This document shows positions 41,210 through 42,121 of a stretch of DNA of 64,000 nucleotides, piece after piece. The notes under the pieces are model-generated. The model was not told the origin of the DNA, made no database searches, and saw only the letters and a list, made by a program, of their open reading frames with translations. Both the position numbers and the translations under genes were made by a program. The first letter of the stretch is position 1, and the number at the start of each line of letters is the position of its first letter. Source of the stretch: Planctomycetota bacterium (GTDB taxonomy: Bacteria > Planctomycetota > UBA8742 > UBA2392); NCBI GenBank assembly GCA_027493625.1, contig JAOSKM010000001.1, positions 587,489-651,488 on the forward strand, read 5' to 3'.

Positions 41210-41276
41210 CCCCGGTTTTCGTATCCCCGCGACATTCCGTGATCATAGACTGTAACTTGTGATCGGGGGATTCTCA

Positions 41277-41948
41277 TTGAGGAAGCTTGCCGCAATCCTG
41301 CCGCTTCTGCTGGCCGCGTGTGTCACAACCCGTCAGCCCGACGCGACGGCCGAAGTGTTCATCCGCGTGGATGGCATGACCCGGGTTCAGGGCATCACGT
41401 GACTCGACTGACCGAATGCGGTCAAGACAGCCCTGGAAGGGCTGAACGGAATCCTGGAACTCGAGACGGACCTGGCCTCCGACACGTTCCGCGTTGCATA
41501 TGATCCGCGGCGCACCGGCGTTGATGCGATGATGGCCGCCATCTCGGAGGTCGGCTACCAGGGCCGCGAGGTGCCTGCGGCCGAGTTCGGCGCGCCTGTC
41601 CGCTGGCGGATCAGCGACCTGCCCGCCGAGCTGCAGGAGCTGTTCGCACGGGCAAAGGCGGAACATCGCCTGGTGCTGATCGACGTGCACGGCCCCGGCT
41701 GACTTCCCTGCGCGAAGATGGAACGCGTGACGTATCCGAACCCCGAAGTGCAACAGGTGCTGGAGCGCTTTTACCTGCGCAAAGTACTGGACCTTGAACT
41801 CGACGCGCAGGCCGCGGAAACCCTGGGGGTGCCGGGCATACCGGTCGCGATTGTTGCCGACGCCGAAGGCAACGAGCTTGCCCGCATCGAGGGTTTCATT
41901 GAGCCGCAGGACTACGCCCGGCAACTCAGCGACCTTGCGGGTGAATGA
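41277..41948 (+). CDS. predicted selenoprotein: lipoprotein with HMA (UxxU) and thioredoxin-like (UxxC) domains
   Basis: One frame of 224 codons contains no TAA or TAG and exactly three in-frame TGA codons (41400, 41409, 41700). TTG start with GGGGGA six bases upstream. Residues 1-15 are a lipoprotein signal (LPLLLAAC, Cys15). Residues 27-100 match a MerP/HMA heavy-metal domain: GIT-U42-LD-U45-PNAVKTAL aligns with the GMTCxxC helix of MerP. Residues 110-223 match a thioredoxin-like domain: VLIDVHGPG-U142-LPC145-AKME aligns with WCxxC, then LGVPGIPVAIVADAEG carries the cis-proline. All three TGAs fall on expected cysteines, so selenocysteine is the best reading. Whether the host makes selenoproteins cannot be seen here. 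Confidence 0.85.
41400..41444 (+). promoter_or_regulatory. candidate bacterial SECIS serving TGA codons 1 and 2
   Basis: After the TGA pair, CAGCCC (41428-41433) and GGGCTG (41439-41444) form a perfect stem with loop TGGAA. The loop starts 22 bases after the second TGA and 31 after the first, within the 16-37 base window commonly used for bacterial SECIS elements. A second small stem, TGACCG-AATG-CGGTCA, starts at the second TGA itself. Confidence 0.45.
41700..41729 (+). promoter_or_regulatory. candidate SECIS for TGA codon 3
   Basis: TGCGCG (41709-41714) pairs with CGCGTG (41724-41729, two wobble pairs) around the 9-base loop AAGATGGAA, 12 bases after the TGA. The loop shares TGGAA with the other candidate. 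The distance is a little short for known elements. Confidence 0.3.
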
Positions 41949-42121
41949 GCCGCGAACTCGCGCGCTCCTCGGCCGTTTGTAGCTGCATGAGGCATACGGT
42001 CTTTTACTTCGCGGTGGCGCTCAGCACGACCCTCGCCGTCGGCTTCGGCCTGCTGCTGATCTTCCTGCGCACACCGGATGATCCACCCCGGCCGCCCACG
42101 GCCCACGAACGGCTGCCCTGA
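41945..42121 (+). CDS. 58-residue single-pass membrane peptide coupled to the selenoprotein
   Basis: ATG at 41945 overlaps the selenoprotein stop (ATGA). The product has two cysteines in VCSC near the start, one membrane helix (about 18-40, VFYFAVALSTTLAVGFGLLL) and a proline-rich tail (DDPPRPPTAHERLP). No family recognised. It could hold or serve the adjacent lipoprotein, but only the overlap supports this. Confidence 0.55.
   Translation: MSRELARSSAVCSCMRHTVFYFAVALSTTLAVGFGLLLIFLRTPDDPPRPPTAHERLP

What the first reader, a model, noticed from the sequence alone, without database searches (positions are those of the whole stretch)
41277..41948. Unannotated triple-selenocysteine lipoprotein combining an HMA domain (UxxU) and a thioredoxin-like domain (UxxC)
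Seen: 224 codons in one frame with no TAA or TAG and three TGAs, each exactly where family alignment wants cysteine. TU-LD-UPNAVKTAL lines up with the MerP TCxxCP helix, and GPG-U-LPCAKME with the thioredoxin WCxxC helix. Replacement of both HMA cysteines by Sec is remarkable. Known: Sec-for-Cys exchange occurs in bacterial thioredoxin-like and MerP-like proteins. Inferred: an exported, membrane-anchored metal- or thiol-handling selenoprotein. I cannot check whether this fusion has been described. Ordinary gene callers would leave only the last 76 codons.
Basis: partly seen in the sequence, partly recalled or inferred. Interest (0 to 1): 0.95.

Follow-up and report, generated by a model that had tools for sequence, protein, structure and literature searches.

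The report
Triple-selenocysteine metal-binding envelope protein
This bacterial gene contains three in-frame TGA codons that are predicted to be read as the rare amino acid selenocysteine, giving a likely membrane-anchored protein that would grip soft metals such as mercury; relatives with the same kind of in-frame TGA codons turn up in many genomes of its phylum, and the best matches in a large protein database begin too late and lack the selenocysteine pair.

Summary
Window 41277-41948 encodes a lipoprotein-like protein with an HMA (MerP-like) and a thioredoxin-like (DsbD-gamma-like) domain; TGA stands at codons 42, 45 and 142, each at a Cys site of its domain family. The assembly has selA, selB, selC and selD. 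In 392 genomes of the phylum (Planctomycetota by a relative's record title), 34 full-length rows occur in 30 genomes, all with 2-4 in-frame TGAs. In 35 members read, the first HMA site is TGA in 35, the second in 34 (one TGC), the Trx site in 16 (Cys in 19). Synonymous codons in the hairpin after the pair are frozen (GCC 26/27, CTG 26/26, GGG 25/25), a SECIS-like sign. No all-Cys full-length relative was found. In relatives, 9 of 13 MerT-HMA matches lie directly upstream of, or fused to, a family gene, and MerR-type genes lie within 4 kb of 8. Beside the window genome's second copy, the MerR-type gene itself has TGA at a Cys position of metal sensors. Most likely a selenol-based soft-metal (mercury-type) capture protein whose Trx domain keeps the pair reduced; metal and activity are inferred. 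A new variant of known selenoprotein kinds.

The parts
41277..41948 (+). Gene of the triple-selenocysteine HMA/thioredoxin-like lipoprotein (TTG start, TGA stop); a GTG at 41259 in the same frame is an alternative start
41265..41270 (+). GGGGGA, Shine-Dalgarno-like stretch before the TTG start
   Evidence: read; untested
41277..41321 (+). Signal peptide with lipobox LAAC; Cys15 would carry the lipid
   Evidence: read; a Cys stands at this place in all 7 rows (the window included); no predictor was run
41349..41570 (+). HMA domain, residues 25-98 (Pfam match 36-94)
   Evidence: MerP 1osd, TM-score 0.93 by target length
41400..41402 (+). TGA, Sec42, first metal-site position
41409..41411 (+). 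TGA, Sec45, second metal-site position
41428..41444 (+). SECIS-like hairpin CAGCCCU-GGA-AGGGCUG; loop 32 nt from TGA42 and 23 nt from TGA45, so one hairpin may serve both
41625..41942 (+). Thioredoxin-like domain, residues 117-222 (Pfam Thioredoxin_7 119-192)
   Evidence: DsbD-gamma 1vrs, TM-score 0.80 by target length
41700..41702 (+). TGA, Sec142 of the UxxC motif (GPG-U-LP-C)
41720..41737 (+). Weak SECIS-like hairpin with loop CGUGA, 23 nt from TGA142
   Evidence: fails the strict criteria
41987..42121 (+). 44-codon ORF for a small, probably membrane-spanning peptide, same peptide after the gene in the relative L015; possible second gene of the unit
   Evidence: read; no NCBIfam match

Best explanation
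The frame at 41277-41948 is a gene with three in-frame TGA codons that are predicted to be read as selenocysteine, making a likely lipid-anchored envelope protein whose mercury-protein-like HMA domain would hold a soft metal such as mercury between two selenocysteines and whose thioredoxin-like domain would keep that pair reduced. Shown by calls: the frame, the domains, the TGA positions, the sel genes, conservation in the phylum, the frozen hairpin codons, the MerT and MerR-type neighbours in relatives. Inferred: Sec insertion itself, lipid anchoring, metal binding, which metal, and the electron path. Proposed working: the UxxU loop captures Hg(II) or a similar thiophilic ion on the outer face of the membrane and passes it on (to a MerT-type carrier where one exists, otherwise it sequesters it); oxidants close a Se-Se or Se-S bond that blocks the site; the fused DsbD-gamma-like domain (UxxC here, CxxC in many relatives) reopens it.
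For: Sec: selC (73.1 bits; ARAGORN tRNA-Sec), selA 547 bits about 0.7 kb away, selB 317, selD 394 bits with its own TGA, all over their cut-offs. TGA at HMA-1 in 35 of 35, HMA-2 in 34 of 35, Trx-N in 16 of 35 members read, Cys at the rest. All 34 full-length rows in 30 of 392 genomes hold 2-4 TGAs. Frozen synonymous codons downstream: Ala GCC 26/27, Leu CTG 26/26, Gly GGG 25/25; after Sec-type Trx sites Val GTG 10/10 and Tyr TAT 11/11 (background 0.36 and 0.28), while the three Cys-type Trx members with Tyr there use TAC. Metal: HMA model matches MerP; of 13 full-length MerT-HMA matches in 32 genomes 9 lie directly 5' of or fused to a family gene, matches at most 283 bases apart; 8 of 8 such upstream or fused proteins scanned pass Pfam's MerT cut-off; MerR-type genes lie within 4 kb of 8 family genes; the own-genome paralog lies in a row with a MerR-type regulator and a small HMA (UxxC) gene. 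Redox: Trx domain matches DsbD-gamma.
Against: The window copy itself has no mer-type neighbour: a threo-3-hydroxyaspartate ammonia-lyase-like gene on one side and a gene without an NCBIfam match on the other. The own genome (86.9% complete) shows no MerA over the cut-off (best 334.5 of 454.45 bits) and only an HMA-part match to the MerT-HMA model, so it may lack import and reduction of mercury; the MerT search rang nowhere, controls included, and says nothing. MerT-HMA matches in relatives stay under that NCBIfam model's own cut-off (0 of 32 genomes over it), and one of the nine linked loci (G319) has a relative without TGA. The hairpin after TGA142 is weak and fails the strict published criteria, which 39 of 62 random codons pass; hairpin energies are not clearly below synonymous shuffles (mean z -0.69 and -0.38). 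No metal has been tested.
Confidence: 0.6

Rival explanations
1. Selenocysteine protein, but a pure selenol/thiol redox relay: the HMA-like UxxU pair is a redox diselenide that passes electrons to or from the thioredoxin-like domain, as domains of DsbD do, and binds no metal in life.
For: DsbD-gamma-like domain; a Sec pair is easily oxidised (general chemistry); several UxxC thioredoxin-like genes in the same order.
Against: HMA part matches MerP; MerT and MerR-type neighbours in relatives, in L100 in one frame with the family protein.
Confidence: 0.22
2. Same protein, but for copper(I) rather than mercury-type divalent metals.
For: CopZ is among the closest HMA models (49.5 bits against 52.3 for UxxU_metal_bind and 36.8 for MerP); six of eight upstream or fused transporters carry a CopZ-type N-terminal domain (zf_CopZ).
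Against: The transporter part is MerT (8 of 8 over the Pfam cut-off); the paralog's regulator scores best with MerR (105.9 bits), then CadR-PbrR (102.7), then CueR (94.7), all under their cut-offs, and keeps a Cys77 that aligns with a Cys of mercury MerR structures (its role as a ligand, absent from copper sensors, is recalled).
Confidence: 0.12
3. No selenocysteine: the TGAs are stops and the region is a decayed gene or short separate ORFs.
For: TGA is used as a stop in this genome; TAA/TAG-free frames with TGAs are common here.
Against: Purifying selection across the TGAs; TGAs at the same sites in 35 members read, with identities to the window protein down to 26%; sel genes present.
Confidence: 0.02
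4. The real gene is the 216-codon antisense ORF 41274-41924.
For: It is the ORF a mechanical list gives.
Against: Two stops in the closest relative, dN/dS 1.26, 33 of 51 changes on its first codon position.
Confidence: 0.01

Closest known systems
NF041115 UxxU_metal_bind, metal-binding (seleno)protein (listed as putative mercuric reductase, UxxU, 2 Sec, in PMC13188914 Table 1)
   Same: HMA-type domain with a UxxU pair; best NCBIfam match of the HMA half (52.3 bits; 56.0 for the own-genome paralog)
   Different: Model is 74 positions and HMA only; curated cut-off 95 bits not reached; no thioredoxin domain
MerP (TIGR02052; structure 1osd)
   Same: HMA fold, metal-site loop at the same place
   Different: Cys pair; 36.8 bits against a cut-off of 92.55; no thioredoxin domain
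DsbD C-terminal (gamma) domain (1vrs, 2fwe)
   Same: Thioredoxin-like fold, active motif at the same place
   Different: CxxC; part of a membrane electron carrier; no HMA domain
NF045683 MerT/CopZ fusion-like heavy metal transport selenoprotein and NF045694 TsoB rhodanese/DsbD fusion-like selenoprotein
   Same: Sec-bearing relatives of an HMA transport protein and of a DsbD-like domain
   Different: Other architectures; the window protein is far below their cut-offs (24.6 of 375 and 30.4 of 805 bits)
Thiol:disulfide interchange selenoprotein, PF13098 UxxC (PMC13188914 Table 1)
   Same: Thioredoxin-like domain with UxxC
   Different: One Sec, no HMA domain in that table entry

Membership tests
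Bacterial selenoprotein | In-frame TGA at sites where relatives have Cys | tested here: met
   Trx site: 16 TGA, 19 Cys; HMA-2: 34 TGA, 1 Cys; HMA-1: 35 TGA and no Cys within the family; ordinary HMA proteins have Cys at both
Bacterial selenoprotein | selA, selB, selC, selD in the genome | tested here: met
Bacterial selenoprotein | SECIS hairpin after the TGA | tested here: inconclusive
   HMA pair: hairpin fits and codons are frozen; TGA142: weak hairpin, strict criteria failed, though codons after Sec-type Trx sites are frozen
Bacterial selenoprotein | Selenium in the protein | not testable with these tools
   needs 75Se labelling or mass spectrometry
HMA domain (PF00403) | Pfam gathering score | tested here: met
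   37.6 bits, cut-off 24.8
HMA domain (PF00403) | Metal site with two thiolates | tested here: inconclusive
   Two Sec replace the two Cys at the same place; binding untested
NF041115 UxxU_metal_bind | Curated cut-off 95 bits | tested here: not met
   52.3 bits
MerP (TIGR02052) | Curated cut-off 92.55 bits | tested here: not met
   36.8 bits
Thioredoxin_7 (PF13899) | Pfam gathering score | tested here: met
   35.0 bits, cut-off 27
Bacterial lipoprotein | Signal peptide with lipobox Cys | tested here: met
   LAAC read; pattern by eye, no predictor
mer operon protein | Neighbourhood with merR/merT/merA | tested here: not met
   Not at the window locus; MerR-type neighbour at the paralog and MerT/MerR-type genes at relatives; no merA over cut-off in the genome

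The most novel reading that the evidence does not exclude
These Planctomycetota run a selenolate version of a mercury-type response: a MerR-family sensor with selenocysteine at one of its metal-ligand positions switches on an operon for a UxxC HMA chaperone and a UxxU/UxxC HMA-thioredoxin lipoprotein, so that sensing, carrying and holding of a soft metal are all done with selenium; and the UxxU-HMA domain is an almost Sec-only variant with no all-cysteine form.
Probability: 0.4. Interest if true: 0.88.

Novelty: new variant of a known kind. Interest (0 to 1): 0.76.

Why it matters
Selenoprotein families usually have Cys counterparts (general knowledge); here the Sec pair of a metal site is kept in 34 of 35 members read from many families of one phylum, so selenium itself seems to be needed, pointing to metal (mercury-type) chemistry rather than general redox. 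The 15 best database relatives begin after the Sec pair, so the family is hard to see in standard annotation. A Sec-bearing MerR-type regulator in the same operon, if real, would be a metal sensor that uses selenium as ligand and gives a directly testable biological selenium-mercury link.

Tried and rejected
Recoded genome (TGA = sense codon): rejected, TGA ends 14 of 39 long ORFs picked in the window (the picking includes the antisense ORF). Antisense gene: rejected. Frame openness as evidence: rejected. SECIS by generic criteria: weak, 59 of 59 HMA TGAs pass, but also 11 of 16 Trx TGAs, 7 of 15 Trx Cys codons and 39 of 62 random codons; energy shuffles unhelpful; codon freezing was the useful test, with the caveat that related rows are not independent. 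Protein searches for an all-Cys full-length relative: none among 1, 12 and 52 reported hits; 949, 7999 and 7997 candidates were scored, the last two after a cut. In one search only the six best candidates of a genome were scored and only matches at E <= 1e-15 listed. PF02411 in the own genome: uninformative, nothing rang in controls either. Viral fold library: the named matches are thioredoxin-like or glutaredoxin-like for the most part. L143 neighbourhood (G158): I saw no mer-type genes in the ORF list, read by eye. Papers: searches showed no title or abstract on an HMA-thioredoxin selenoprotein or a Sec MerR regulator; subscription journals are mostly not held. Papers seen: PMC13188914 (passages, outline 47, section 7 parts 1-2 of 3, section 5); PMC9312934, PMC2398784, PMC4807772 (passages); PMC12013277 (term search without hits); all others listings only. 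Members outside the phylum were not searched for by genome; the genome-contig scan reaches close relatives only.

Full report
WHAT IS THERE. The frame 41277-41948 (+) reads as 223 residues with TGA at codons 42, 45 and 142 and a TGA stop. It begins with a short hydrophobic stretch ending in LAAC, then an HMA domain (Pfam 37.6 bits) and a thioredoxin-like domain (Thioredoxin_7 35.0 bits). An AlphaFold2 model built from 21 rows (mean pLDDT 83.6, pTM 0.56) matches MerP 1osd over the HMA part (TM-score 0.93 by target length, rmsd 1.2) and the DsbD gamma domain over the rest (1vrs_D, 0.80). The relative placement of the two domains is not trustworthy at this pTM.

IS IT MORE THAN CHANCE. A frame free of TAA and TAG is cheap here: 162 such frames of at least 223 codons exist in the window and 119 of them hold three or more TGAs. 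The real evidence is comparative. The closest relative (L013, a record titled Planctomycetota MAG Bin_90R) has the same three TGAs. Changes fall on third codon positions (35 of 54), dN/dS is 0.157, and is alike before, between and after the TGAs; the opposite-strand ORF fails the same test. TGA is a normal stop in the window (14 of 39 long ORFs picked by a simple rule, one of them the antisense ORF).

SELENOCYSTEINE MACHINERY. The window's assembly (4.72 Mb, 6 contigs, 86.9% complete) holds a tRNA-Sec gene (73.1 bits; confirmed by ARAGORN), selA about 0.7 kb from it (547 bits), selB (317 bits) and selD (394 bits), all over their cut-offs. SelD has an in-frame TGA itself.

THE FAMILY. In the order, 7 full-length relatives (the window's own gene included) occur in 6 of 17 genomes, each with exactly three TGAs, down to 39% identity; the own genome has a second copy at C1:2021764-2022363. 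In the phylum, 34 full-length rows occur in 30 of 392 genomes, with 2, 3 or 4 TGAs; none of the 34 is TGA-free (my count of the 50 rows of its table, leaving out the TGA-free partial G319 row, the partial G234 row and 14 rows that cover chiefly the Trx part; six candidates per genome were scored, E <= 1e-15). That the phylum is Planctomycetota is inferred: G008 contig 8 has the same length as the named record of L013. In a 31-row alignment TGA occurs in 4 of 296 columns: HMA-1 (30 of the 30 rows that reach it), HMA-2 (29, and one TGC), Trx-N (16, against 15 Cys codons) and one further column in three rows. Five more members (L101-L105) are UxxU plus CxxC, so for 35 members the counts are 35/35, 34/35 and 16/35. 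L099, a fusion in which the first half of this HMA domain is missing from the alignment, has no TGA and is not among the 35. On a tree of 30 rows the Sec/Cys label of the Trx site needs two changes, though well-supported branches force only one. Thus Sec and Cys have exchanged at the Trx site, while the HMA pair is nearly always Sec.

DATABASE BLIND SPOT. With the 31-row profile the top 15 database proteins (145-195 residues) all begin after the UxxU pair; two agree with truncated forms of L093 and L094. None of 12 and 52 reported hits carries both an HMA and a thioredoxin Pfam domain.

RNA SIGNAL. After the HMA pair a hairpin with loop GGA lies 32 nt from TGA42 and 23 nt from TGA45 in the window, so one element may serve both; the best hairpin's loop lies at 23 nt in 22 of 29 Sec-type HMA-2 sites. 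The amino acids there could be written in many ways, yet Ala is GCC in 26 of 27, Leu CTG in 26 of 26 and Gly GGG in 25 of 25 rows with these residues (backgrounds 0.36, 0.34, 0.29). After Sec-type Trx sites Val is GTG in 10 of 10 and Tyr TAT in 11 of 11 (0.36, 0.28), and the loop lies at 23 nt in 9 of 16 Sec rows and 0 of 15 Cys rows. Against this: energies are not clearly below synonymous shuffles; the published generic criteria (PMC13188914, section 5), as I coded them, are passed by 39 of 62 random codons, and TGA142 of the window fails them. Rows share ancestry, so the binomial values overstate significance.

NEIGHBOURS. The window copy stands between a threo-3-hydroxyaspartate ammonia-lyase-like gene (511 bits, cut-off 452, opposite strand) and a gene without an NCBIfam match; a 44-codon ORF follows it. 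In relatives the context is telling. Of 13 full-length matches to a MerT-HMA model in 32 genomes with the family, 9 lie directly 5' on the same strand or in the same frame, matches at most 283 bases from the family match: G172, G039, G249 (two), G037, G239, G040, G319, G020; the other four are G158, G172 contig 40, G319 contig 278 and G186. The G319 case is the TGA-free relative L099. All these matches are under that model's own cut-off (0 of 32 genomes over it), but 8 of 8 such proteins that I scanned (all but the second of G249) pass Pfam's MerT cut-off, and 6 of 8 carry a CopZ-type N-terminal domain. MerR-type genes lie within 4 kb at 8 family loci: the own-genome paralog, G007, G319, G037 (opposite strand), G039, G239 and two of G249. 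I saw no merA-like gene in the ORF lists of the eight stretches taken, read by eye without a family scan.

THE PARALOG OPERON. At the own-genome paralog (L051) the order is MerR-type regulator, small HMA gene with UxxC, triple-Sec lipoprotein. The regulator frame passes TGA at codon 112 and ends at a TGA that overlaps the ATG of the HMA gene. G007 has the same order with TGA at codon 112 and 54% identity. All 16 TGA-free relatives reported in the order have Cys at that place (9 in the alignment, 7 read by eye), and it aligns with a Cys of mercury MerR structures 4ua1 and 5crl that I recall as an Hg(II) ligand. In the phylum only these two of the listed MerR-type matches hold a TGA. Both carry a GCAGC-GGUC-GCUGC hairpin whose loop starts 15 nt after the TGA, one short of the published spacing. 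Both upstream regions hold a dyad between -35-like and -10-like boxes with 19 bases between them (read), the spacing that I recall for MerR-family promoters.

HOW IT LIKELY WORKS. Metal capture by a diselenolate HMA loop on a lipid-anchored protein, with the fused DsbD-gamma-like domain reopening the oxidised pair. Steps shown: sequence, domains, conservation, machinery, context in relatives. Steps inferred: Sec insertion, anchoring, metal identity, electron transfer. Weak points: no mer neighbours at the window locus, no MerA over cut-off in this genome, and an uninformative MerT search there.

WHAT IS KNOWN. The 2026 review PMC13188914 counts 119 prokaryotic selenoprotein families/subfamilies, among them a two-Sec UxxU metal-binding protein (NF041115), a Sec MerT-type protein and UxxC thioredoxin-like proteins; its Table 1 holds no HMA-thioredoxin fusion and no MerR-type regulator. 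The HMA half here scores 52.3 bits against NF041115's cut-off of 95. A marine survey lists a MerP selenoprotein (PMC2398784, passages), and selenoproteins in Planctomycetes are known (PMC4807772, passages). Ten paper searches showed no description of this fusion in titles or abstracts, within the limits of the library. Hence: a new family built from known selenoprotein kinds.

Noticed in passing
L051 6944-7333 (own genome C1:2020943-2021332) and L112 (G007:C298:8007-8378): MerR-family regulator with in-frame TGA at codon 112, where 16 of 16 TGA-free relatives in the order have Cys; a possible selenocysteine metal sensor.
   Followed up: partly
L051 7333-7566; L041; L033: Small HMA gene with UxxC (GFLUMxCP) directly before the triple-Sec gene in three loci.
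   Followed up: partly
L082, L083, L085 (family f81): A fourth in-frame TGA at IPDT-U-IL; the other aligned rows have Arg, Trp or aliphatic residues there, none Cys. Unexplained.
   Followed up: no
L086, after its Trx domain: A second HMA in the same TAA/TAG-free frame with TU-PDG-U (two more TGAs).
   Followed up: no
L089 2532-3011 and beyond: MerT protein (33.8 bits, cut-off 32.9) whose following HMA reaches GMT and then TGA: likely a Sec MerT-HMA protein upstream of a family gene.
   Followed up: partly
L020, L021, L025, L030, L034, L038: Thioredoxin-like genes with in-frame TGA in WUGPC or YUGPC motifs in the same order: a selenoprotein-rich lineage.
   Followed up: no
window 41987-42121: 44-codon ORF for a hydrophobic peptide; the same peptide is encoded after the gene in the relative L015.
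   Followed up: no
L045 (own genome C1:2059742): SelD with an in-frame TGA near its N-terminus (GU-GCKL).
   Followed up: no
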